This document shows positions 7,813-55,285 of a stretch of 64,000 bases of DNA, in pieces (position 1 is the stretch's first letter; the number at the start of each line of letters is the position of its first letter). Both the position numbers and the translations under genes were made by a program. The DNA is taken from the NCBI GenBank assembly GCA_017644105.1, contig JAEPMD010000009.1:39936-103935 (forward strand), given 5' to 3'. Source of the stretch: Rhizobiaceae bacterium. GTDB lineage: Bacteria; Pseudomonadota; Alphaproteobacteria; Rhizobiales; Rhizobiaceae. A model generated the notes under the pieces. It had not been told where the DNA came from, searched no databases, and worked only from the letters and a program-made list of their open reading frames with translations.

Positions 7813-9036
7813 CTACCGCGCCAACCCGATATTCAACGCCTCAACGCCGCGTACAGAAAGTCCGCGTTTGTATGAAACGTGATCATCAATCAGCGTGAAA
7901 TCTTTGAATTCGCGCAGCAGCGTTTCGAAAATAACTTTCATATTCTGCCGTGCAATGTGATTGCCCAAACATAGATGCGCACCCTGCCCGAAAGCCAAAT
8001 GACGGTTGGGTGTGCGGTCAATCTGAAACTGATCTGGGTTTTCAAACTGCGCAGGATCCCGGTTCGCAGCCCCATAGAGCAAGCCAAATGTCGTGCCCTT
8101 CGGAAAGGTGTGATCCCTGATCGTTACATCTTCGAGCGCATGACGATGAAAAAACGGTAATGGCGGCTCAAAGCGGAACATTTCTTGGATCGCTGTTGGG
8201 ATAATCTCGGGCGCCTCACGCATCTGAGCAATCGCATTGGGATGTTTAAGGAGCGTATGCATGCCCGAGCCCAACACATCAATGGTTGAGCCATGTCCGG
8301 CCATCAGAATCAGCATGCAAGTGGAAATAAATTCATCCTCGGTGTAATGCCCTTCCCGCTCATCCAAGATCATCTTGGAAATCAAATCATCCTTGGGGTT
8401 TCTGCTGCGCTCATTTTTCAGATCCACCAGAAATTCAAAGAACTCACGCGTTGCCGTTTCAGCAATTTGCTTCTTTTCATCGGAGCGATCGACATCAAAA
8501 AACTGGACCACCTGCTCAGACCATAATCTCAGCTGATTTGAATATTCCTCTGGCGCACCCAATAAATGCCCAATCACATAGCCCGGCACATGCGCTGCAA
8601 AATCCTCAATAAATTCGATCTGATCCTTGTCTCTAAAGCCAGCGATCAACTGATCCACAAAGGCTTGCACAACAGGTTCAAGCGCCGCGATGGAACGCGA
8701 GGTAAATGAGCCAAACACCTGTTTACGCAAGCGGCGATGCACCTCGCCATCACTATCCAGCAGACTAAACTGCACCACACGCTCGTGATAAGGCATATCA
8801 TGCCAATTGGCACGGCGCTGTCGTTCCTTCGCGTCTTCTTCTGATTCCAAACCTTCAAGTGAACGCACCATATTTTGGTTCGTTGCAATCTTGCTCACAT
8901 CCTCATAGCGCGAGAGCAGATACATATCCTGATCAGTAAAATAAAAAGGCGCGTCTAGCGCCCGCAAAGCCGCATAGGTTTCATATGGATTTTCAGAAAA
9001 ATCTTTTGAAAGCGGTTCAAACTTTACTTGCGCCAT
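7813..9036 (-). CDS. cytochrome P450
   Basis: A 407-residue soluble bacterial P450 monooxygenase. The heme loop FGQGAHLCLG is at residues 349-358 with the proximal ligand Cys356. The K-helix ExxR is at 285-288, and the I-helix motif is AGHGST at 246-251. The usual acidic residue before the conserved Thr (AGxE/DT) is absent and Gly-Ser stands there, which can alter proton delivery. No ferredoxin or reductase gene is adjacent, so electrons must come from elsewhere, possibly the [2Fe-2S] ferredoxin encoded at 49337-49657. It is divergent from the MBL hydrolase gene. The substrate is unknown. Confidence 0.9.
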   Translation of the reverse strand: MAQVKFEPLSKDFSENPYETYAALRALDAPFYFTDQDMYLLSRYEDVSKIATNQNMVRSLEGLESEEDAKERQRRANWHDMPYHERVVQFSLLDSDGEVHRRLRKQVFGSFTSRSIAALEPVVQAFVDQLIAGFRDKDQIEFIEDFAAHVPGYVIGHLLGAPEEYSNQLRLWSEQVVQFFDVDRSDEKKQIAETATREFFEFLVDLKNERSRNPKDDLISKMILDEREGHYTEDEFISTCMLILMAGHGSTIDVLGSGMHTLLKHPNAIAQMREAPEIIPTAIQEMFRFEPPLPFFHRHALEDVTIRDHTFPKGTTFGLLYGAANRDPAQFENPDQFQIDRTPNRHLAFGQGAHLCLGNHIARQNMKVIFETLLREFKDFTLIDDHVSYKRGLSVRGVEALNIGLAR

Positions 9037-9140
9037 GTATTCTGCCCAACACTGATATAAAACAAATTACATACTGGCATAGGCCTGCAAATACATCTAG
9101 ATTTATCGCAAATTCCAACAGTAAATGTGAAGCAAATATC

Positions 9141-9998
9141 ATGTCTGAAGCAAGCGTCGCGCTCCTTGGCGTTAAAGGTGGTCCAGCGATTAAACCAGGG
9201 TCCAATATGCCCTGCTCGCATCTCGTTAAACTCGCCGGCAAAAATATCGTCGTCGATGCCGGCCTTGGCGTTGCCCGCGGGATCTGTGATCAAGGTGTGG
9301 AACTGACTGAGATCGATATGATCATCATCACGCATTTGCATTCCGATCATTACCTGGAGCTTGGTCCGTTATTCCACACCGCTTGGACAGCAGGTTTAAA
9401 CAAGCCAATCAAAGTCGTTGGACCAAAAGGTTTGCAAGACTATTGGGATGGATTTCTTCTCTCGATGAAATTCGATATCGATCTGCGCATTGAAGATGAA
9501 GGCCGCTGTGATCTCTCTGAGCTCTTCGCTTATGAAGAGATCTACGAGGGTGAAATCTTTGGAAGTGATGACCTGACCGTCACCGCATTGAAAAACATCC
9601 ATCCGCCCATAGAGGAAAGCTATGCCATCCGCATTCAAACCAGCGAAAAATCCGTCACATTATCAGGTGATACAACCTATATGCCGGAATTGGCCGATTT
9701 TGCGAAAAGTTCAGACGTCTTGGTACATGAAGCATTGCTGTTAAAAGGGGTCGATGCATTATGTAAAAGCCTGGGTGTTAAAGATGATCGTTTGAAAAAT
9801 CATCTCTTACGAAGCCACACGACGGCCGGAGATGTGGGTAAAATCGCGTCAAAAGCTAAAATTAAGGCACTTGTGCTCAACCATCTTGTTCCCGGCGCTG
9901 ATCCAAGTATCACCGAGCAAGATTGGGTGGATGCGGTGCGCGAACATTGGCAAGGCGAATTACATATTGGCAGAGATGGGATGAAAATTGAGTTTTAA
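9141..9998 (+). CDS. MBL-fold metallo-hydrolase (RNase Z/arylsulfatase-like)
   Basis: A 285-residue metallo-beta-lactamase-fold enzyme. The metal-binding motif THLHSDH occupies residues 64-70. Further ligands are expected in SGDTTY (Asp) and in NHLVPG (His) near the C-terminus. The pattern resembles the RNase Z / phosphodiesterase branch, but no tRNase-specific exosite is evident. The reading frame is open upstream into the P450 gene; the ATG at 9141 is chosen because homology-like sequence (MSEASVALLG) begins there and an intergenic promoter would otherwise be lost. The phosphatase gene follows after 42 bases in the same direction. The substrate is unknown. Confidence 0.75.
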   Translation: MSEASVALLGVKGGPAIKPGSNMPCSHLVKLAGKNIVVDAGLGVARGICDQGVELTEIDMIIITHLHSDHYLELGPLFHTAWTAGLNKPIKVVGPKGLQDYWDGFLLSMKFDIDLRIEDEGRCDLSELFAYEEIYEGEIFGSDDLTVTALKNIHPPIEESYAIRIQTSEKSVTLSGDTTYMPELADFAKSSDVLVHEALLLKGVDALCKSLGVKDDRLKNHLLRSHTTAGDVGKIASKAKIKALVLNHLVPGADPSITEQDWVDAVREHWQGELHIGRDGMKIEF

Positions 9999-40948: not shown

Positions 40949-41730
40949 ATGGCACGACGAAAATACGGTACAAATCTCCCTGCCCCTTTTTTAAAGAACT
41001 TAAAAATCGTCTCGGAGCAATTTGCTGAAAAGAAAGGCTATCCGTTTAACCTGCCTTGGCTTGATCAAGGGCGTTTTGAACTTGAATTCACATCGCCAGT
41101 TACAATCATCATCGGGGAGAATGGAACCGGAAAATCCACTCTTATTGAAGCAATAGCCGCTTTGAGCGGATATGATGAATCAGGCGGGGCAAGGGTTACA
41201 TGCCGGTTGATCACTCCAAGGCCATAGATAAAAGTGGTGCAGAGCTCTCAGAAGTTTTACGTGGCGCATGGCTTCCAAAGGTCACCAATGGCTGGTTTTT
41301 CAAAGCGGAATCCTTTTTTTCAGCTGCCCGCTATTTAGATGAAGCTGCAATTGACGATCCTCTGGGCGGGCCACCACCGGATTTTCTATCATGGAGCCAC
41401 GGCGAAGGCTTTATCCGCTTCTTTGAAGAGCGCATGTCCCGCCAAGGCATCTATTTCATGGATGAGCCGGAAAGCGCATTATCACCTAAACGGCAATTAG
41501 AGCTCCTGCGCATATTATACAAAATTCAACAAAGCAAAAACGCGCAAGTGATTATGGCAACGCATTCGCCTATTCTTATGGCCCTTCCCGATGCTAAAGT
41601 TCTCGAAGTCACGCGCCTAGGTCTTAATGAGGTGGATTACCGCGACACCTCGCATTTCAAACTCTACCAATCCTTCACATCCGACCCGGAAGATTTTATC
41701 AACGAGATGATTGTTGAAGATCAAGATTAG
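40949..41730 (+). pseudogene. AAA-type P-loop ATPase split by a frameshift
   Basis: Two frames join at a G4 tract (41186-41189). The first 92 codons hold Walker A GENGTGKS (residues 56-63). The second frame, open from the join and with a first ATG at 41200, holds [18 protein letters not shown], the ABC-ATPase-like IYFMDEPESALSPKRQLELL and ATHSPILMA. One extra G at the tract, or a -1 slip, restores one product of about 260 residues with Gly-Lys-Gly-Tyr-Met at the join. Whether this is a lost gene, programmed slippage or a sequence error cannot be told. It resembles COG3910-type stand-alone ATPases of unknown role. The annotation spans both parts. Confidence 0.75.
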
Positions 41731-42588: not shown

Positions 42589-43761
42589 ATGCTTTTTTCA
42601 GGGAACGCGCTTTATTTGGCCGGTAATAAAAATAACATGAACAAGCCTGTTATAAATATTTCACCTGATGTGACCGAAATTTCCTCAGATCTGCCTGAAT
42701 TGCCAAATCAAATTGAAATTTCAAAAGATAATGATTTTGATTTTTTATCCGTTGAGTATCGCAATCTTTTCGAGGCTTCCGATGCCACAGCGTTTCAAAG
42801 TCCAGATTGGCTTGCTGCGTTTTACGATGAATTAGCACCTTGCAGAAATGCGAGAAAACTGGTTATCACCGGCCGCAATCTGGGTTCGGGGGAGCTGATC
42901 TTTGTATTACCTCTTATTCAAAGAAAGATTAAAAACATCATTCTTGTTGAATCGACTGATCTCGGCGTCAGCGATTATTCCGCGCCAATTGTTCATAAAT
43001 GCCGTTTAAATGACCTATTAACTGACAAATTACTTTCGAAAAATGTATCCAAAGCTATTGGTAGATATGACCTCTTGCGCATTAAACCCATTCGTGAAGA
43101 AACACGTCATTTATGCGAGTTATTTTTTAAAACGACATCTCGCTAGCTAGACTTCTCTGCGCATGCATCACAAATGCATGCACCTTATGATGTTTGGCGC
43201 AAAAACGCCTTTGGCAAAAGCCATACAAAATATATCGATCGGAAATTCCGTCGTTTTAATAAAGACCATGCTGTTACTTTAGAAAAAGTTTCAGGTGACG
43301 AGATTGAAGACGCGATCAATTACGTCCAGCAACAACGAAAAGGACGCTTTGATGGAGATCCGATCCAAGAAGATTTCGTTCTGAAATTTTATACCCGAGT
43401 TGCTAAAAATTCAGGATTAAAATATATCGCAAGAACATATCAATTAATGGCAGATGGCCAACGTGCTGGCGTTGTTTTTGGGCTTATTAAAGATAAACGC
43501 TATCACTATCTGCTCATCGGATGTGACTACGATCAATTTGGCAAACACTCACCTGGCCTGATCATGTATGATCTCATCATGGCTGATTGGTTGTCCGAAG
43601 GTGGTGACATATTTGATTTCACCATTGGTGACGAACCCTTTAAAGCGAGCTTTGGAACAAAGCCAACGCAGATGTATGAAATACTTAAAGCCGGCAGCCC
43701 TTTGGGCAAATTGGCACGTATTTTCATGAAGTTAAAAACCCAAATGAACACGTCGTCTTAA
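42589..43761 (+). pseudogene. CelD-type GNAT acetyltransferase interrupted by one in-frame TAG
   Basis: One reading frame of 390 codons is broken only by TAG at 43144-43146, between the codons for SR and LDF. The first 185 codons are the N-terminal part (AFQSPDWLAAFYDELAP, GSGELIFVLPLIQR). The rest (YHYLLIGCDYDQFGKHSPG, DIFDFTIGDEPFKASFG) is the C-terminal GNAT half of the Acetyltransf_6/CelD family linked to polysaccharide biosynthesis. Neither half would be active alone. No ribosome-binding site precedes the next ATG (43174), so restart is unlikely. The start at 42589 is uncertain; an ATG at 42637 is an alternative. The downstream MBOAT-like gene is intact, so loss may be recent or readthrough may occur. 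Confidence 0.7.
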
Positions 43762-43774
43762 ATGGGTTAACAGC

Positions 43775-45256
43775 ATGTCTGATAGCGTACAACAATCCCA
43801 ACCAATGACGTCTTTTTCTCCCTGGCATTTGCGAAATGCTTGGTTGAAGATGGATCAAAATCCACGTGCTATTGAATTTGCCAAATCTAATATCGGCATA
43901 TTTGTGCTTCACGCAGCCTTTATCTTTGTCATGGCTCTTAGTCAGCAATTTTCAAATTCTGCTCTTGGATTGATCAGTCTCACGATCATTGGCGTTGCGA
44001 TACTACCGAAATATCGCATTCCGCTGATCATGTTGTCCTCCGTATTTTATCTATTGCTGCGTCCCTTTCGTGTGGATGGATGGAGTAACTTACTCAATAC
44101 AAAAGTGGTGGAATTACCACTCAACATATCGCCTTATATTTGGCAGTTTTCAGCTGTAGGTGCGTTCCTCTGCTTCGCATTTATCTTTTTGAAATGTATA
44201 AATTGGCAAAAAACCACCTGGATCTCAAAACGACCGGTTTTGAGCCTAATTCTGATCTGGGCGAGTTGTGCGATCATAGCCCTACTGACCTCTGATCAAA
44301 GCTATGTCAGCACCTTTCTATGGACCTTTACAGGCGTACTTGTCTCCAGTCTCTGGTTCTTAGCCTATGCGGCCGTTGATCAAAAAAACAAAGAACAAAC
44401 ACCACTTGTCGTTCGTAGCGGATTTATGCGCCCGTTCTGGGGTGGCAGCGCAACGCCAATTGGTAAGAGCTTTGGCTACTTAAACAAATTCGACGCCAAG
44501 AACGATAATGAGTTGGCAGTAACGCGTTTGAAAGCCATCAAACTCATTGTCTGGGCACTTATTCTCACGATCATGATGCATGCAATGGAAATGGTGGCGC
44601 GCGGCTATCTTAACTTACCTGTCTTGCAAGAGATCATATTGGCCCATGCGGATGGAAATCCCTTTGCAACGGGCACGAATTGGTCGAGCCTCATTTACAA
44701 CTATTTCTTGGATCTTGTTGTGATCGCGATCTGGGGACATTTCATTGTCGCTGTTATTCGCATGATCGGCTATCGCATACCGCGAAACACCCGCAACCCC
44801 CTTGCCTCGCGCACTTTGGCTGAGTTCTGGAACCGCTATTTCTTTTATTTCAAAGAGCTACTGGTTGACTTCTTCTTTTATCCAACCTTTGTGCGTTACT
44901 TTAAAAAAGCGCCCAAACTGCGCATTGCGTTTGCAACGTTCTGCGCCGCCTTTTTGGGTAATTTCCTCTACCATTTTGCGCGCGATACATTCCACTTCGC
45001 CCAATTGCCGTTTTGGGAAGCGTTAGCGATCTTTCAGTCCGCAGCGGTCTATTCCGTTCTCCTAGCCTTGGGTTTAATCTTGTCGCAGCTAAATCCTTAT
45101 AAGCCCAAACCGCAGGATGGGTTTTTTCGCTACGAAGTCCTCACACGATTAAATGTGATCGCATTCTTCTGTTTCCTGAAGATCTTTGACGATATGTCAG
45201 GCGAAGGCAATGTTGTAGAACGCCTTGCTTTTCTGATTGATTTATTTGGCGCTTGA
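43775..45256 (+). CDS. MBOAT-like polytopic membrane protein
   Basis: A 493-residue protein with about nine to eleven membrane helices. A segment near residues 345-410 has FWNRYFFYFKELLVDFFFYPTF and then FLGNFLYHFARD; the Trp-Asn/Arg context followed by a buried His is like membrane-bound O-acyltransferases, which transfer acyl groups to polysaccharides or lipids. It starts 14 bases after the CelD-type gene, probably one transcript. The combination suggests acylation of a surface glycan. The family call is by pattern; the acceptor is unknown. Confidence 0.6.
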   Translation: MSDSVQQSQPMTSFSPWHLRNAWLKMDQNPRAIEFAKSNIGIFVLHAAFIFVMALSQQFSNSALGLISLTIIGVAILPKYRIPLIMLSSVFYLLLRPFRVDGWSNLLNTKVVELPLNISPYIWQFSAVGAFLCFAFIFLKCINWQKTTWISKRPVLSLILIWASCAIIALLTSDQSYVSTFLWTFTGVLVSSLWFLAYAAVDQKNKEQTPLVVRSGFMRPFWGGSATPIGKSFGYLNKFDAKNDNELAVTRLKAIKLIVWALILTIMMHAMEMVARGYLNLPVLQEIILAHADGNPFATGTNWSSLIYNYFLDLVVIAIWGHFIVAVIRMIGYRIPRNTRNPLASRTLAEFWNRYFFYFKELLVDFFFYPTFVRYFKKAPKLRIAFATFCAAFLGNFLYHFARDTFHFAQLPFWEALAIFQSAAVYSVLLALGLILSQLNPYKPKPQDGFFRYEVLTRLNVIAFFCFLKIFDDMSGEGNVVERLAFLIDLFGA

Positions 45257-45279: not shown

Positions 45280-47046
45280 TCATTCAACCTCAATAACAAT
45301 CGCTGTGTGAATAGCATGTGAATCTCCCCAACGTGGGCCTGTAGGTGGCGTATGATTAAAAAACATGGCCATCATCGCCTTGCCTCGACCACCATTATTT
45401 GGCTCACCTCCAAGCCACGGAATCCAATCATTGGGTTCACCAGTTACCCAGACCCAACCTCCATCCGGCTCACGCGCGCCTTCGGTTTGATAAAGTCCAA
45501 AAACGGGGCCTGTATAGGCTCCATCATCGTGTTCCTGCCAAAACCGTGTATCATCTTTAATCAAATTATAGACAAAGTCGTTTTCTTCCGGGCTCGTCAT
45601 TGTAGCGAGATGACCACCCGCCTTTTCAGCGAGTTTGTTCACAACAGCAAAACTGTCACAACACCAGTTCAACACACCCAGATAAAGTCGATCTTCATAA
45701 TAGCCATACACAAATTCTTTCCCCCTAAGCGCCTTTGCGGCCTTGAGTAGTCTGGGGTCTGTCTCCAAAAGACTAAGTGCTTCAGGGTCATAACGACGTG
45801 CATTGGTCGACGAGATAATCGGCACAGTGCTTGTTTCCACGGCAACCAATTCCACGCCCAGTGCTGCCGCAGTTCCCGCTGTCACCACACCAGTTGACGG
45901 TAATTCTTCCGCTGCTTGAAAATCAGCAATTGCTTGACGTGTTTTGCGCCCTATTTGACCATCCTCTGGTCCAGCCGCATAACCACGCAAATTAAGAGCG
46001 GCTTGAATGGCCTTGGCATCATCTTTAGTTAAACCCAGATTTTCCTCAGCTTGAGACGCAACTTCGCGAGTGACTTTGACTGTCTCATCGCTTTGCACAC
46101 TCGTCCCGCTAGCCGCCGCAAGCCTTTCCGCAGCAATATCTTCTAAAACAGCAACAGCCATCTCCCGCAATGCGCCATTTGGAAAACGATCCAGAAAAAT
46201 TTCCCAGGTTCGCTCGGAATTGATGGACATAGCCGCATCAAAAAGCGCTTGTTCCTGCTCCAATGCCAAAGATACCCCCTCGCCGGAAGATGATAAGTTT
46301 AAATAGATATCCTGTGTTAAATCATTTGAAACAATGGGGGTTTGTTTATTATCGGTGTCTCGTTCCACATCGCGGATTACGCGCTTCATCAGCGAAAGAA
46401 CCTCCACGTTTTCCGCAGGGAGATGTGCCGCAAGCGCTGTTGCAAAGGGTGAATTTCCGCCATTTCCATCGAAAGCAACCTGCCCGGGAGACGCAGCGAA
46501 CAACATCATCGCACCTTGATTTTTATGCTCAACCGGCGCTAACCCGCGAGAGACAAGGGCCCTAGTTTGGGAAAAGTTATCTCGGTAAAATTGATCCGCC
46601 AGCGGGTTGTCGCGACAAGCATCGATAAAAATAAGCGCTGCCTTGGAATTCTTTCGCATTAACCGGGCCATTTTATCAAGGGCAACCGTTTCACCCTCAA
46701 TATCAAATTCAGTTTCAAGCCGAGCATCCGTTCCAATCAGATAATTTCGTCCCTCATATTGCATCCCGTGTCCAGCAAAATAGAAAAACGTTAAATCAGC
46801 ATCTCGGTTTTCCGTTAGAAATTTGGCAAAGGAACGACCAAGTTCATCACGGCTAAGATCAAAATGAGTGGAAACTTTAAAACCCAGATCTTCCAAAGTT
46901 TTAGAGATAAGTTTTGCGTCCTTTGTAGGGTTCGCCAACGCAGTTGCGTGTTCATAGTCTGAATTACCCACGACGAAAGCCGCGCGGACTTCCGCTTGTG
47001 CCGCATTTGACAAGAGCAAGACAAAAAGAAAGATCAAACGGACCAT
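45280..47046 (-). CDS. exported caspase-like protease with peptidoglycan-binding and C-type-lectin domains
   Basis: A 588-residue protein with a signal peptide (residues 1-18, cleavage after AQA). The peptidase C14/metacaspase-like domain has His93 (FAGHGMQ) and Cys144 (IDACRDNP). A peptidoglycan-binding repeat (about 340-397: NLRGYAAGPEDGQIGRKTRQ) follows a helical linker. The C-terminal ~140 residues form a C-type-lectin-like domain with WVTGEPND (533-540) and GGEPNN (546-551). AAGGGG precedes the ATG. It is encoded alone. Roles in cell-wall turnover, surface binding or programmed death are all possible; none can be shown. Confidence 0.8.
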   Translation of the reverse strand: MVRLIFLFVLLLSNAAQAEVRAAFVVGNSDYEHATALANPTKDAKLISKTLEDLGFKVSTHFDLSRDELGRSFAKFLTENRDADLTFFYFAGHGMQYEGRNYLIGTDARLETEFDIEGETVALDKMARLMRKNSKAALIFIDACRDNPLADQFYRDNFSQTRALVSRGLAPVEHKNQGAMMLFAASPGQVAFDGNGGNSPFATALAAHLPAENVEVLSLMKRVIRDVERDTDNKQTPIVSNDLTQDIYLNLSSSGEGVSLALEQEQALFDAAMSINSERTWEIFLDRFPNGALREMAVAVLEDIAAERLAAASGTSVQSDETVKVTREVASQAEENLGLTKDDAKAIQAALNLRGYAAGPEDGQIGRKTRQAIADFQAAEELPSTGVVTAGTAAALGVELVAVETSTVPIISSTNARRYDPEALSLLETDPRLLKAAKALRGKEFVYGYYEDRLYLGVLNWCCDSFAVVNKLAEKAGGHLATMTSPEENDFVYNLIKDDTRFWQEHDDGAYTGPVFGLYQTEGAREPDGGWVWVTGEPNDWIPWLGGEPNNGGRGKAMMAMFFNHTPPTGPRWGDSHAIHTAIVIEVE

Positions 47047-50503: not shown

Positions 50504-53500
50504 ATGGCAAAAGAGCCCGCTGGTCACAAAAAAGATCATTCAAAAGCCAATCAAGGTGGCAATTCGCAAGAGGCCGATTTTTCTCTTGATGAAAAGTCAT
50601 TTGAGGATCTGGAGCAACAAGTATCGAGCGCAGCACGCGAATTAGCATCGCCGCAAGATACATCGGACAAGTCGACAGCAACTTCGACTGCAGCCAGCTC
50701 AAACGATAAAGCCGCCGCGCCGCCTTCAGAGCCCAAAAGGGTACCTGCTGAGACTACGCAGATTGATTTTGATCCGGCAAATGATGATTCAGGCCTTAAA
50801 TCGTCCCCTCTTCTGGCAGCATTGGATCAGCGCGTATCAGGTTCTGCATACACATTTGCAGTTTTGCTTTCACTTGTATGGATCGCAGGTGTGGGTGCGG
50901 CTGCTTATTACTTCTTAACCGAGAATATCAATGCGGTTACCAATGCTAACGATTTTATCAACGACCCGTTCCTCATCGGTGCCGTTCTCGTTGCCATTAT
51001 CCCGACATTTATCTTCTTTGCGTTTGCTATTATGGTCACACGTGCGCGCGAGTTTAAAGTTGCGGCACGCGCTATGACACATGTTGCAATCCAACTCGCT
51101 GATCCAGAAACTCGTGGCACTGGCAAAATCACCACGGTAGGCCAAGCGATCCGCCGCGAAGTCAATGCCATGAATGAAGGCATCGAACGCACAATTGCCC
51201 GTGCGTCAGAGCTTGAGACGCTGGTACATTCAGAAGTAAACGCGCTTGAGCGCAGCTATACAGATAATGAAATGCGGGTTCGTGGTCTTGTGACAGACCT
51301 TAGCAATGAACGAGATGCGATCATTTCTTATGCAGAACGTTTGCGTACTTCAATCGTTGGCGCGCGCGATGAACTGAAAGACGAGCTTGGACAAGCCGGT
51401 GATGAAATCGCCATGCGCATTGCGCTTTCGGGTGAAACTGTCGCCCAATTAATGGATACACATTCCGCAACATTGCAGGAGCGTACCACCGATATCACCC
51501 ATTCAATCCAAAGCTTGTTTGAGCAAAATTCAGAAAATCTTTTGAACAATTTGCGCACTTCAGGCAATGACATCACGGGTGAAATCGACAGCCGATTAAA
51601 CATGATCAGCTCTCAATTTGTGTTACAAAGCAAAGAGTTGCTCGCAGATTTTGAAACGCGAGTTAATACACTTGATTCAACTGCTGAACGTTTGAACGAA
51701 TCTATCAATGAACGCACACGCCAGCTAAACGAAGCTTTGTCAGCGCGTAGCTCTGAAATTAACGATTCACTTTCAATTGGCCAACGCGCGATCGAACAAG
51801 GTTTGGGCGATGTTATCAATTCAATGAATGCCACATTGGATGAAAAAGGTGCTGCCTTCCGTCAACAACTTAAAACCAGCGCTGATGAAGCAGTGATGGA
51901 CATTGATCTGCGCTCCGGCCTTGTGGGTGAGCAAATGCTCGCAGCAAGTAGCGAAGTCAACACGAGCTTTGCCGAGAATATCGAAAAACTCGCTGCGACG
52001 CTTGACCAACGTACATCCGCTTTTAACACGACGGTTAAAGACGGTGTCGCCGAGGTGAATGAAACGCTGACAGCCAGCAACTTCAATCTTACAAATATCA
52101 TTGAATCTGGTGTTGATAAATTAAGTGGGCATGCCGACACATTGAAAAATGCTGCGGATAGCGCGGTTAACCAGATCGATGAAAGCTTTATGGCCAGCAA
52201 TATGGCCGTTGATATGGCGATCACAACCGGTGTTGAAAACCTCAACAAGACGCTTTCTGACGGTTCCGCAACAATCGAAGGTCACACAAAAGGCATCACA
52301 GCCGATCTAACGCGCAACTTGGTTGATTTAAGCGAAACTCTGACTACATCTCAGTCAGCGCTTGACGAAAGCATGAGCAAAGCCGTCGAAGATATCAATG
52401 TTTCGATGAAATCTCGCACAGATGCGATCAATTCTGTTGCGCAAGATAGCATCAACCAATTGGAAAATAGCTTCGACCAACGCACCAACAGCATTGCAAA
52501 TATCACGCAAGAATCTGTCGATAAACTTGGTGCAACTTTGGACGAGAAGACCAGCAATTTTGCAAATACCGCTCAATCTTCAATCAATGCACTGGATGCA
52601 TCGCTTCAGGATCGCACTGAAAAAATGGACAATCTCAGCAAGATGACGATTGAAACCATTGAGGGTTCGGTAAAACGCACAGCGGATTCCTTGGAAACGA
52701 TCACCAGCGAAGGCATTCAATCACTTGATATGTCCATCCAACTTCGTGCTGAGACAATGCAAAATATTGCGACTGAAAATATGACGAAGCTTGATAACGC
52801 TCTCCACGAGCGCGCTAACGAGCTTGATTCCATTGCAAAACGCAACATTGACCGTCTTGAGCAAACATTGACTGATCGTACAAACGCGATGGAGACCATT
52901 TCTGGTGAGGGTGCAAACCTGATTACAAAAGCTATGGACACAATGACAGACGCCCTCTCCGGTGCGCTTGATCGCGAATCCAGCAAAATCTCGGTTGCCC
53001 TCATGAGCAATGAAGAAAAGCTCGGCAACCTACTCACTGATAAAGCTAATTCTCTTGAAGAAAAAGCAAATACAATCTCTTCAATTGCAAGTGGCTCCAT
53101 CAATACCATCTCATCTGCTGTTGAGAATTCATTGCAAAAAGTGGAGCAACACGCAGCGTCTATGACAGAGCAAACGCTTGATGCGATCACTTCAATTGAC
53201 AATGCTGTCGAGCAGAAAACAGATCATGTTGAAAAACGCTTTGGCATTTTGAACTCCACTTTGGCTGATGGTCTTGATCGTGTTTCAACCACATTGGGTG
53301 AGCAAGCCATTTCACTTGCAAGCACATTGAAATCCAGCGTGTCCTCTGCGACGACCGATCTTGGTGAAGAGGCAGCTCGCGCTCAAGAAGCATTGCGTGC
53401 CGTTACGAGCGAATTTGGTGACAGTATCAGCAAGTCAAGCGAAGAGCTGAACCAATCGATCGACGACAAATTGGGCGCACATACAAAACGCTTTACTGAC

Positions 53501-55285
53501 AGCGTCAACACAGCGGCTTCGCATCTTGATGAAGCTTTGAACATTCGTTCAAATGAGCTTTCTGAAACGCTTGGTGCGCATACACAATCTATGACAGAAA
53601 ATGTGAACGCGTTGACCTCGGAAGCTTCGAAAATGCAAGAGATTTCGACGGTAACCAACCAGTTGAACGCCAAATTGTCAGAAAATACACAAGAGCTTGC
53701 AAGCTTCATGGGTGAAAAACTCAGCCCGATGGTTGACGAAATCACAGAGACAACTGCGAATGCAACACAAGCACTTCGTGAGACTGCACAAGCCGGCGCT
53801 GAGCAGTTCAAGGCTGAGAACCAGGCTCTTATTGATGCGATTGCCACACGCAGCAGCGAAACATTAACAGCCGTTCGTGATGCGAGTGCAAGTCTTGCGC
53901 AAAATACCGCAATCATTGTTGATAAGATGAATGAAAGCAGTACCACGATTAATGATACCATTCATCAAGCATCTGCAAATATTTCTCTCATCAACACACG
54001 CTTGAATGAAACAGCGGATAATCTGTCTGACTCAACTGAGAAAGCCTCAAGCCTTGTATCCAATTCGGCAGATATATTGGCGAAAAACATTGGTCAATTG
54101 GGTGGGATCTCGAATACAACTCTCAATCAGATCGCCAGCATCAGCGAGCACTTTGAGCAGCATTCAAACGTCTTATCATCCGCGACTGATCTGTTGGGCG
54201 AAGCTCAAAACAGATTGTCATCAACGATGGATGAGCGCAAAGACGCACTTGATCGCCTATCATCCAGCCTCGTGGCTCGATCAGAAGATGTTGAACGCAA
54301 TATGCGCTCGTTGATTGACATCGTGGATGGCGCATTTACACAAGCCGCCACATTGTCTTCTAACGCCGCGGGCACAATTGACCGCGAGCTTAAGTCTTCG
54401 GTCAATGATGTTGATAGTCTTATTAAAGACACTGAGAAGCGTTCAGTTAATGCCGCGCAAGTTCTTCGCAACACATTGCGTGAAGCCGTTGACGAGGCTG
54501 TCAGCCGCTTCTCTGGCGCAACCGAAGAAATTCGCGTCACTGCAGGCAGCATTCGCCAAGAATTGAGCGATACCCGCGATGAACTTAAAAGAGGTGCGTT
54601 TGACTTGCCTGAAGAAACACGTGAAAGCGCAGCCGCTATGCGCCGTGCCGTTGCGCAGCAAATTGAAGCCCTTCAAGAGCTGTCTTCGCTGGTTTCAAAA
54701 TCAACGCAAACTCTCGATGCAAACCCCTCACCTGCATCCAACCCGCCATCATCAAACGCGCGTGAGCAGGTGACTTCTTCACCAGAGATTAGTGCACGAG
54801 AACTCCGCCCAACTAGAGATGTCGTAACGGAAAGCCGCGATGACGCCCGTTGGGTTAGTAATCTGATTAAAGGTGCCGATACACAAGAAGCACCAGCTCC
54901 AGCGCCTGCGCAACCAACACGCCAGCCGCGCAAGCCGCAGCACGTTGTTGAATCGCTAAACTCATTGTCTGTGGATATTGCCCGCGCCATTGATCATGAC
55001 GCATCCGTTGAACTCTGGCAAAGATATCAACGTGGTGAGCGAGATATCTTCACACGTCGTCTTTACACGATCAAAGGCCAGAAGACATTTGATGAAATTC
55101 AATCCAAATATGCGCGCGAGCCTGAATTCCGCAAAGCAGTTGATCGTTACATGACGGATTTTGAAAAACTGCTTTCAGATGTGTCTCGCAATGATCCAAG
55201 CAATGTCATTGGTCAAAGCTATCTCACATCAGACACTGGTAAAGTTTATACCATGCTGGCCCATGCAAGCGGTCGTCTGAAGTAA
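50504..55285 (+). CDS. giant membrane-anchored coiled-coil protein, probable growth-pole ring (GPR) protein
   Basis: A 1593-residue protein. Two transmembrane helices (about 115-138 and 156-178) follow a hydrophilic N-terminal ~110 residues. The next ~1200 residues are heptad- and 22-residue-periodic helix, from 598 to 817 in ten exact 22-residue units (e.g. FANTAQSSINALDASLQDRT). A conserved C-terminal domain (about 1480-1593: SLSVDIARAIDHDASVELWQ, EFRKAVDRYMTDFEKLL) ends it. This matches rhizobial apolipoprotein-like proteins, of which Agrobacterium GPR forms a ring at the growing pole. It is the probable organiser of polar growth here. The identity rests on architecture rather than alignment. 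Confidence 0.75.
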   Translation: MAKEPAGHKKDHSKANQGGNSQEADFSLDEKSFEDLEQQVSSAARELASPQDTSDKSTATSTAASSNDKAAAPPSEPKRVPAETTQIDFDPANDDSGLKSSPLLAALDQRVSGSAYTFAVLLSLVWIAGVGAAAYYFLTENINAVTNANDFINDPFLIGAVLVAIIPTFIFFAFAIMVTRAREFKVAARAMTHVAIQLADPETRGTGKITTVGQAIRREVNAMNEGIERTIARASELETLVHSEVNALERSYTDNEMRVRGLVTDLSNERDAIISYAERLRTSIVGARDELKDELGQAGDEIAMRIALSGETVAQLMDTHSATLQERTTDITHSIQSLFEQNSENLLNNLRTSGNDITGEIDSRLNMISSQFVLQSKELLADFETRVNTLDSTAERLNESINERTRQLNEALSARSSEINDSLSIGQRAIEQGLGDVINSMNATLDEKGAAFRQQLKTSADEAVMDIDLRSGLVGEQMLAASSEVNTSFAENIEKLAATLDQRTSAFNTTVKDGVAEVNETLTASNFNLTNIIESGVDKLSGHADTLKNAADSAVNQIDESFMASNMAVDMAITTGVENLNKTLSDGSATIEGHTKGITADLTRNLVDLSETLTTSQSALDESMSKAVEDINVSMKSRTDAINSVAQDSINQLENSFDQRTNSIANITQESVDKLGATLDEKTSNFANTAQSSINALDASLQDRTEKMDNLSKMTIETIEGSVKRTADSLETITSEGIQSLDMSIQLRAETMQNIATENMTKLDNALHERANELDSIAKRNIDRLEQTLTDRTNAMETISGEGANLITKAMDTMTDALSGALDRESSKISVALMSNEEKLGNLLTDKANSLEEKANTISSIASGSINTISSAVENSLQKVEQHAASMTEQTLDAITSIDNAVEQKTDHVEKRFGILNSTLADGLDRVSTTLGEQAISLASTLKSSVSSATTDLGEEAARAQEALRAVTSEFGDSISKSSEELNQSIDDKLGAHTKRFTDSVNTAASHLDEALNIRSNELSETLGAHTQSMTENVNALTSEASKMQEISTVTNQLNAKLSENTQELASFMGEKLSPMVDEITETTANATQALRETAQAGAEQFKAENQALIDAIATRSSETLTAVRDASASLAQNTAIIVDKMNESSTTINDTIHQASANISLINTRLNETADNLSDSTEKASSLVSNSADILAKNIGQLGGISNTTLNQIASISEHFEQHSNVLSSATDLLGEAQNRLSSTMDERKDALDRLSSSLVARSEDVERNMRSLIDIVDGAFTQAATLSSNAAGTIDRELKSSVNDVDSLIKDTEKRSVNAAQVLRNTLREAVDEAVSRFSGATEEIRVTAGSIRQELSDTRDELKRGAFDLPEETRESAAAMRRAVAQQIEALQELSSLVSKSTQTLDANPSPASNPPSSNAREQVTSSPEISARELRPTRDVVTESRDDARWVSNLIKGADTQEAPAPAPAQPTRQPRKPQHVVESLNSLSVDIARAIDHDASVELWQRYQRGERDIFTRRLYTIKGQKTFDEIQSKYAREPEFRKAVDRYMTDFEKLLSDVSRNDPSNVIGQSYLTSDTGKVYTMLAHASGRLK

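What the first reader, a model, noticed from the sequence alone, without database searches (positions are those of the whole stretch)
45280..47046. Exported metacaspase with peptidoglycan-binding and C-type-lectin domains
Catalytic His93 and Cys144 are intact and are joined in one polypeptide to a wall-binding and a sugar-binding domain, behind a signal peptide. A periplasmic or surface caspase directed to wall or glycans is unusual and could act in wall remodelling, interaction with other cells or defence.
Basis: partly seen in the sequence, partly recalled or inferred. Interest (0 to 1): 0.65.

Follow-up and report, generated by a model that had tools for sequence, protein, structure and literature searches.

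The report
Exported caspase with swappable lectin head
This is a bacterial protein-cutting enzyme of the caspase family that is sent outside the cell membrane and carries a cell-wall-binding and a lectin-fold domain; in relatives the binding half is exchanged between genes while the cutting half stays the same, as if the enzyme's target sensor were being swapped.

Summary
One intact minus-strand ORF (588 aa) carries a signal peptide, a caspase domain with His93/Cys144, a PG_binding_1 domain and a C-type-lectin (CTL) fold. Lectin_C is just under Pfam's cut-off in this copy, but several relatives pass and the predicted fold is a clear CTL. "Sugar-binding" is not shown: the Ca2+ motif is degraded.

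The genome holds three such proteins. The architecture is patchy in Alphaproteobacteria: 3 of 397 order genomes, at least 8 of 394 family genomes.

The main result lies beyond the finding. In Rhizobiaceae-type relatives the wall-binding plus lectin half is exchanged while the protease half stays. Two 17-kb loci are about 93-95% identical around the gene and 97% (aa) in the caspase, but 55-65% (aa) in the C-terminal domains, with synonymous divergence up 5-7 fold. A tandem pair has identical caspases and CTLs only 61% alike.

Best reading: a wall-tethered Arg/Lys-type orthocaspase with an exchangeable recognition head; ligand and substrate unknown. Constant caspases with variable C-termini are known, so this is a new variant of a known kind.

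The parts
45280..47046 (-). whole gene: exported caspase - PG_binding_1 - C-type-lectin-fold protein, 588 aa
46993..47046 (-). signal peptide, residues 1-18, probable cleavage AQA|E
   Evidence: sequence; read by eye, no predictor run
46303..46986 (-). caspase domain (Peptidase_C14), residues 21-248; nearest solved fold MALT1
46768..46770 (-). catalytic His93
   Evidence: invariant in 16 of 16 full-length rows and in 111 of 111 ungapped rows of 113 caspase ORFs
46615..46617 (-). catalytic Cys144
   Evidence: invariant in 16 of 16; 110 of 111 ungapped rows
46918..46920 (-). Asp43, predicted S1-pocket acid (aligned with an Asp of MALT1; Asp142 and Asp193 are the other two)
   Evidence: MALT1 residue numbering and the place of Asp193 recalled/inferred
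46477..46575 (-). residues 158-190, low-confidence loop after Cys144 with nearly invariant T161-R162 and a mostly basic residue 167: candidate self-cleavage loop
   Evidence: pLDDT under 50 at 158-179 and 183-190; R or K at 167 in 70 of 113; role inferred
46042..46290 (-). helical linker, residues 253-335; the equivalent stretch, with the first residues of PG_binding_1, holds 6 of the 10 strongest recombination breakpoints listed for relatives
45859..46026 (-). peptidoglycan-binding domain PG_binding_1, residues 341-396
   Evidence: solved-structure matches CtpB, SltB3, amidase fusion
45283..45774 (-). C-type-lectin-fold domain, residues 425-588

Best explanation
It is an orthocaspase exported to the periplasm and tethered to the wall by PG_binding_1. 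Its C-terminal C-type-lectin-fold head recognises a ligand at the envelope, and the caspase cuts envelope proteins after Arg or Lys, probably after self-cleavage in the loop behind Cys144. In the family the protease half is kept while the wall-binding plus lectin half can be exchanged as a cassette by recombination. The head is therefore most likely under selection to vary, as expected of a recognition module facing variable targets (other cells, phages, a host or self markers). Shown by computation: export signal (by eye), domains and folds, intact dyad and conserved acids, in-genome triplication, cassette exchange in relatives. Inferred: periplasmic location, wall binding, Arg/Lys specificity, ligand-triggered activation, selection, the nature of the target.
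For: Domains and folds. Dyad plus D43/D142/D193 invariant in 16 of 16 full-length rows; in 113 caspase ORFs D43 and D142 in 111 of 111 ungapped rows, D193 in 109 of 111. Three in-genome copies; all three Lectin_C matches of the genome lie in caspase genes. Cassette exchange: in L030 vs L031 150-base bins give flanks 87-99%, caspase half 84-95%, C-terminal half 55-77% nt, and 93% again in the first bin after the gene; dS 0.27 against 1.28 and 1.82, Fisher p 9.4e-15 for caspase against CTL; L030's C-terminal half is instead closest to L029's. G1436 tandem pair: caspase 100% aa / 97% nt, PGB 69/70, CTL 61/68, Fisher p 3.7e-20; 0 of 1000 shuffles reach its break, nor that of L030/L031. Other exported caspases carry envelope-type modules: SH3_3 (L009), LprI lysozyme inhibitor and an F5/8 type C-like domain.
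Against: No ligand, substrate or activity is known. The window copy's Ca2+/sugar motif is degraded. No partner gene is conserved widely. Cassette exchange is shown in Rhizobiaceae-type relatives and, less cleanly, in one tandem pair of the window's own clade (L021; break at about residue 240, at the caspase end), not for the window gene itself, whose paralogs are mostly saturated at synonymous sites. Some significant breaks lie inside the caspase (about 101 in the L162 pair, 141 in L026/L031), so the half-and-half picture is not the whole story. Pairs share alleles and are not independent. Exchange can follow from ordinary recombination without selection. Many pairs show no break.
Confidence: 0.5

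Rival explanations
1. Housekeeping envelope protease: the wall-binding and CTL domains only anchor it, and the C-terminal half diverges because it is weakly constrained.
For: No widely conserved partner genes. It stands alone behind folK (131-base gap) with a convergent neighbour. The CTL is less conserved than the caspase in both clades.
Against: Weak constraint raises amino-acid, not synonymous, divergence; dS rises about 5-7 fold in the C-terminal half of L030/L031 while the surrounding DNA stays about 93-95% identical. Other pairs keep similar dS in both halves (L128/L163 0.13/0.13/0.11; L032/L033 0.83/0.46/0.72). The gene is patchy, not found in the 3 sampled congeners (82, 99 and 87% complete).
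Confidence: 0.2
2. Secreted effector: the protein leaves the cell and its head binds the surface of other bacteria, algae or a host, where the caspase acts.
For: Signal peptide, exchangeable binding head, relatives on plasmids of a nodule isolate of Rhizobium leguminosarum and, on a plasmid typed as conjugative, of an aquaculture Phaeobacter.
Against: No secretion signal beyond the N-terminal signal peptide was recognised (none was searched for by tool), no immunity-like partner gene found, and PG_binding_1 suggests retention in the wall.
Confidence: 0.15
3. A member or close variant of the EACC1-caspase conflict systems: constant caspase with exchangeable C-terminal modules, acting against invaders or in cell death.
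For: NCBIfam caspase_w_EACC1 matches weakly (E 1.1e-10). PMC7159879 (passages) describes up to 50 alternative domains behind a constant caspase domain, with a membrane component.
Against: 41.4 bits against a cut-off of 140. The 5' neighbour is folK, and no EACC1-type gene was recognised among the eight neighbours scanned. The rest of the genome was not searched for EACC1.
Confidence: 0.1
4. Target gene of a diversity-generating retroelement (variable C-type-lectin head written by a reverse transcriptase).
For: Caspase plus CLec variable proteins exist in cyanobacteria (PMC7517822, passages).
Against: No RVT_1 match in the window's genome (genome 99.88% complete). In relatives the differences run over the whole C-terminal half including PG_binding_1 and begin in the linker.
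Confidence: 0.02

Closest known systems
Orthocaspases / prokaryotic caspase homologs (Peptidase_C14, PF00656), including exported ones with PG-binding domains
   Same: Caspase domain with intact His-Cys dyad and conserved acidic residues; PG-binding fusions reported for 11 of 671 sequences (PMC3501461, passages).
   Different: Addition of a canonical C-type-lectin fold at the C-terminus and cassette exchange of the C-terminal half; the word 'lectin' has 0 occurrences in the main text of PMC3501461.
EACC1-caspase two-gene conflict systems (PMC7159879, passages)
   Same: Constant N-terminal caspase, exchangeable C-terminal modules.
   Different: Here one gene, exported, no EACC1 neighbour recognised, and sequence types of the SAME module pair are exchanged, not unrelated domains.
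DGR-diversified CLec sensors coupled to caspase-type effectors (PMC7517822, PMC10907252; passages)
   Same: Variable CLec head with a caspase-type peptidase in one protein or system.
   Different: No RVT_1 reverse transcriptase found in the genome; diversity by recombination of whole modules; animal-type CTL fold; exported and wall-binding.
MALT1 paracaspase
   Same: Closest solved caspase fold (Z 27.4); two aligned Asp residues of the Arg pocket (their role recalled).
   Different: No death or Ig domains detected; bacterial, exported.
Polymorphic toxin / CDI-type tip exchange (recalled)
   Same: Constant half with exchangeable C-terminal half, tandem and broken copies.
   Different: Here the constant half is the enzyme and the variable half the binder; no immunity gene seen.

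Membership tests
Orthocaspase (Peptidase_C14) | Caspase domain above Pfam cut-off | tested here: met
   134.7 bits against 21.4; fold matches caspases
Orthocaspase (Peptidase_C14) | Intact His-Cys dyad | tested here: met
   H93, C144; 16 of 16 full-length rows
Orthocaspase (Peptidase_C14) | Cleavage after Arg/Lys | not testable with these tools
   D43, D142, D193 conserved agree with an acidic S1 pocket; no assay
Paracaspase (MALT1-like) | Death and Ig domains around the caspase | tested here: not met
   Pfam scan shows only C14, PG_binding_1, PG_binding_2 and Lectin_C; caspase fold nearest MALT1
PG_binding_1 proteins | Domain above Pfam cut-off | tested here: met
   51.1 bits against 23
PG_binding_1 proteins | Binding to peptidoglycan | not testable with these tools
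   no assay
C-type lectin domain (PF00059) | Fold | tested here: met
   pLDDT 87.9; best Z 15.5 among C-type lectins
C-type lectin domain (PF00059) | Sequence score above Pfam cut-off | tested here: inconclusive
   19.4 bits by hmmscan against 22.6; 22.3, or 23.6 with its neighbours in the frame, in the genome search; L013, L014, L021, L025 pass
C-type lectin domain (PF00059) | Conserved disulfide cysteines and full Ca2+/sugar site (E-P-N, E, W-N-D; recalled) | tested here: not met
   domain cysteines only C462, C463; K at 556 and G at 574; 0 of 16 rows carry all five residues
EACC1-caspase conflict system | NCBIfam caspase_w_EACC1 above cut-off | tested here: not met
   41.4 against 140
EACC1-caspase conflict system | EACC1 membrane gene as 5' neighbour | tested here: not met
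   5' neighbour is folK
DGR variable protein | Reverse transcriptase in the genome | tested here: not met
   0 RVT_1 matches in the genome

The most novel reading that the evidence does not exclude
A polymorphic surface-recognition protease: a wall-tethered bacterial caspase with one constant catalytic half and many interchangeable lectin-fold heads, kept diverse in populations by recombination, working as an extracytoplasmic receptor-protease for telling self from non-self or for meeting variable attackers or hosts. It would be a bacterial counterpart of lectin-gated protease cascades.
Probability: 0.3. Interest if true: 0.85.

Novelty: new variant of a known kind. Interest (0 to 1): 0.6.

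Why it matters
To my knowledge what exported bacterial caspases do is unknown. The tandem copies with identical protease halves and different heads give a natural experiment: what differs between the heads should define what the enzyme recognises. If the heads are recognition modules under selection, bacteria use caspases outside the cytoplasm as aimed proteases, and constant-effector/variable-sensor design can arise by recombination without a reverse transcriptase.

Tried and rejected
DGR explanation: rejected for this genome. Conserved operon partner: within 8 kb across 21 loci no gene family other than the caspase reached more than 5 loci. The shared ones are mostly Rhizobiaceae-type or Mesorhizobium synteny (among them smc- and ppdK-like genes, named from their sequence starts, not scanned); two families of 3 loci cross lineages (L025/L028/L118 and L028/L118/L119) and were not followed up. 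Known defence system: PADLOC gives only a generic 'caspase' match (38.4 bits). Empty-site comparison in congeners: G001 has other neighbours at the downstream block, G002 at folK; folK of G001 and both flanks in G003 end at contig ends, so the insertion point could not be defined. Promoter and terminator scan: not above shuffles. Upstream bins of the two L026 comparisons (37-64%) are a misalignment: one search shows the upstream block of L026 matching L030 and L031 at about 95-97% with an offset of about 1.5 kb. Idea that the G605 copies L117 and L118_2847 share a caspase but have unrelated heads: the module tree does not reject them as one clade (AU p 0.146; with L119 p 0.17), so no exchange is claimed there. 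Caspase domains of all triple-domain proteins as one clade: rejected (AU p 2.8e-7); that tree used 57 of the 109 rows, after dropping 8 named rows (7 long branches, one near-duplicate) and thinning L043-L097, and it does not tell several gains from gains and losses. Counts of triple-domain genomes rest on my own three profiles read in loci of about 1.5 kb on each side of the match; in the longest ORFs (for example G747, G965) a distant caspase could be missed. Literature: searches (open-licence PMC only) listed nothing that I recognised as this triple architecture or cassette exchange in it; papers were seen as search listings and, for eight, passages only. PMC4550343 (passages) mentions Peptidase_C14 and PG_binding_1 among outlying ExoR-like hits, nothing closer.

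Full report
Observation. The ORF at 45280-47046 is real, intact and on the minus strand: 588 aa, ATG start. Residues 1-18 look like a type I signal peptide ending AQA|E (read by eye). H93 (AGHG) and C144 (DACR) are as reported. Pfam gives Peptidase_C14 21-248 (134.7 bits), PG_binding_1 341-396 (51.1 bits) and Lectin_C 472-555 (19.4 bits, cut-off 22.6). Lectin_C passes in both in-genome paralogs and in L021 and L025, in L118_12959, L117_6565 and the plasmid copy L126, but is not reported for L118_2847, L119 and L121, which only my own CTL profile assigns.

Folds. AlphaFold2 on the whole protein with 13 homologs gave mean pLDDT 76 and pTM 0.55. Its caspase part matches MALT1 best (Z 27.4, rmsd 3.1, 215 aligned; Foldseek E 1.2e-15) and then animal caspases. 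The C-terminal domain alone gave pLDDT 87.9 and pTM 0.86 and matches C-type lectin domains such as DCIR (Z 15.5), lithostathine, codakine and Mincle. The family profile finds solved C-type lectins by sequence (a multi-domain receptor chain E 1.6e-14 summed over repeats; single-domain CD23 E 4.6e-10), and the full profile finds PG-binding domains of CtpB, SltB3 and an amidase fusion.

Active site and ligand site. In 16 full-length family members H93, C144 and the acids D43, D142 and D193 are invariant. In 113 caspase ORFs from the fetched loci, D43, H93 and D142 are kept in all 111 ungapped rows, C144 in 110 and D193 in 109. D43 and D142 align with Asp residues of MALT1; that these and D193 correspond to its Arg pocket is recalled and inferred. 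Orthocaspases are described as cutting after positively charged residues (PMC6426788 abstract). The stretch 158-190 is mostly low-confidence and carries the nearly invariant T161-R162, a candidate self-cleavage loop. The lectin site is weaker: the domain has only C462 and C463, and of the five canonical Ca2+-site residues (recalled) the window keeps E548, N550 and D575 but has K556 and G574; none of 16 rows keeps all five. Sugar binding is therefore open.

Genome and distribution. The genome has 12 Peptidase_C14 matches, two or more of them partial. Three are triple-domain genes (window, L013, L014), and they hold all three Lectin_C matches of the genome. Other in-genome caspases carry SH3_3, MORN or PG_binding_1. 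A scan of genome contigs kept 79 loci (the best of 154 relatives); 14 of these carry 15 triple-domain genes, all alphaproteobacterial by title. In sampled genomes, the CTL profile matched 5 of 397 in the order, 7 of 385 in the class and 12 of 398 in the phylum; with a caspase recognised in the same ORF these are 3 of 397, 2 of 385 and 3 of 398 (samples overlap, all include the window's genome). In the family at least 8 of 394 genomes, the window's included, have relatives along the whole query, one (G059) with a broken frame; only 3 candidates per genome were scored, and G1240 looks like a ninth but was not checked. The 3 sampled congeners have none. Two contigs of the family sample have the same lengths as named records of Rhizobium herbae and Ensifer adhaerens, so the window's family is most likely the one that contains these genera. 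Plasmid copies exist; the two with annotation are called only 'caspase family protein', and the three domains were verified in all three records opened.

Cassette exchange. Caspase and module trees disagree: the caspase places L030 with L031 (100/79), the module places L030 with L029 (100/99). In nucleotides, L030 and L031 are about 93-95% identical over 17 kb around the gene. In 150-base bins the flanks and the first part of the gene run 84-99%, bins from 8900 to 9799 (C-terminal half) 55-77%, and the next bin is back at 93%. L026 against L030 shows the same: C-terminal half 49-65%, downstream flank 88-96%; its upstream side agrees but was misaligned. Synonymous divergence in L030/L031 is 0.27 (caspase), 1.28 (PGB) and 1.82 (CTL), which faster protein evolution alone does not explain. 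In G1436 two adjacent genes have caspases 100% identical in protein (97% nt) but PGB 69% and CTL 61%. In L021, of the window's own clade, the tandem copies have caspase dS 0.51 and CTL dS 2.42. Of 23 full-length genes compared pairwise (pairs with caspase identity of 80% or more listed), the five strongest breaks lie at residues 283-347 (window numbering, approximate), in the linker or at the start of PG_binding_1; of the ten strongest, six do, and the other four lie at 241 (L021), 460 (L027/L031), 101 and 141, the last two inside the caspase. L126/L163 and L126/L128 also break at 463-465, weakly. These pairs share alleles and are not independent. Shuffling synonymous differences reached the observed break in 0 of 1000 for the L161, L030/L031, L026/L030, L026/L031 (break at 155, in the caspase) and L021 pairs, in 2 of 1000 for L029/L030 (break at 76, in the caspase) and in 349 of 1000 for L032/L033. 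Many other pairs show no break, for example L128/L163, L025/L028 and L160_4072/L161_4171. G1464 has a broken middle copy between two intact ones. For the window's three paralogs synonymous sites are mostly saturated, so exchange cannot be tested there; their amino-acid identities are caspase 63-73%, PGB 71-83%, CTL 41-46%.

Context. The gene follows folP-folB-folK with a 131-base gap and faces a convergent gene. No partner gene is widely conserved in relatives. In G605 seven Peptidase_C14 matches occur, all between 975 and 1000 kb of one contig, three of them triple-domain; others there carry LprI, an F5/8 type C-like domain and a sub-threshold DUF4384. One related CTL sits on a guanylate-cyclase-domain protein instead of a caspase (L120).

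Interpretation. The most economical account is an extracytoplasmic, wall-tethered orthocaspase whose head is a recognition module that is swapped, under selection or by drift. Caspases with variable C-termini (EACC1 systems, PMC7159879) and caspase-linked variable CLec sensors (PMC7517822, PMC10907252) are the nearest known designs; passages only were read. This one fails the tested membership features of both. Target, ligand and trigger are unknown.

Noticed in passing
L030 7944-9764 and L031 7944-9764 (with L026, L029): C-terminal half of the gene replaced within an otherwise about 93-95% identical chromosomal locus next to an smc-like gene.
   Followed up: yes
L161 4171-8069 (G1436) and L160 4072-9717 (G1464): Tandem copies: G1436 with identical caspases and different heads; G1464 with a broken copy between two intact ones.
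   Followed up: yes
L117 and L118 (G605, about 975-1000 kb): Island of seven caspase matches with different envelope-type C-terminal modules (PG_binding plus CTL three times, LprI, F5/8 type C-like), among transposase-like ORFs (the latter by sequence impression, not scanned).
   Followed up: partly
L120 7811-9007 minus: Guanylate/adenylate cyclase domain protein with a related C-type-lectin domain at its C-terminus, probably behind a membrane helix (by eye).
   Followed up: partly
L122 6535-8663 minus (G059): Triple-domain gene whose caspase is split between two reading frames: natural break or sequencing error.
   Followed up: partly
L017 4579-4947 and L018 2274-3758: Two partial caspase genes at contig ends of the window's genome; left apart.
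   Followed up: no
L127 3959-5758 (Phaeobacter piscinae plasmid pP14_b): A divergent triple-domain gene on a plasmid typed as conjugative, near TcmP, phage-like and transposase genes.
   Followed up: partly
window 42589-45256 plus: Three-gene block (unknown 185 aa, Acetyltransf_6, very weakly DltB-like protein) starting in the lowest-GC 2-kb bin of the window, conserved together in congeners G001 and G003 but beside RNase D-like and AspRS-like ORFs in G001 (named by eye).
   Followed up: partly
window 41200-41730 plus: 176-aa ORF resembling only the C-terminal end of AAA ATPases of defence systems (AriA, PtuA, GajA): a likely remnant.
   Followed up: no
window 50504-55285 plus: 1593-aa protein with apolipoprotein-like repeats and weak ZorA-tail matches, a long coiled-coil-like protein.
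   Followed up: no
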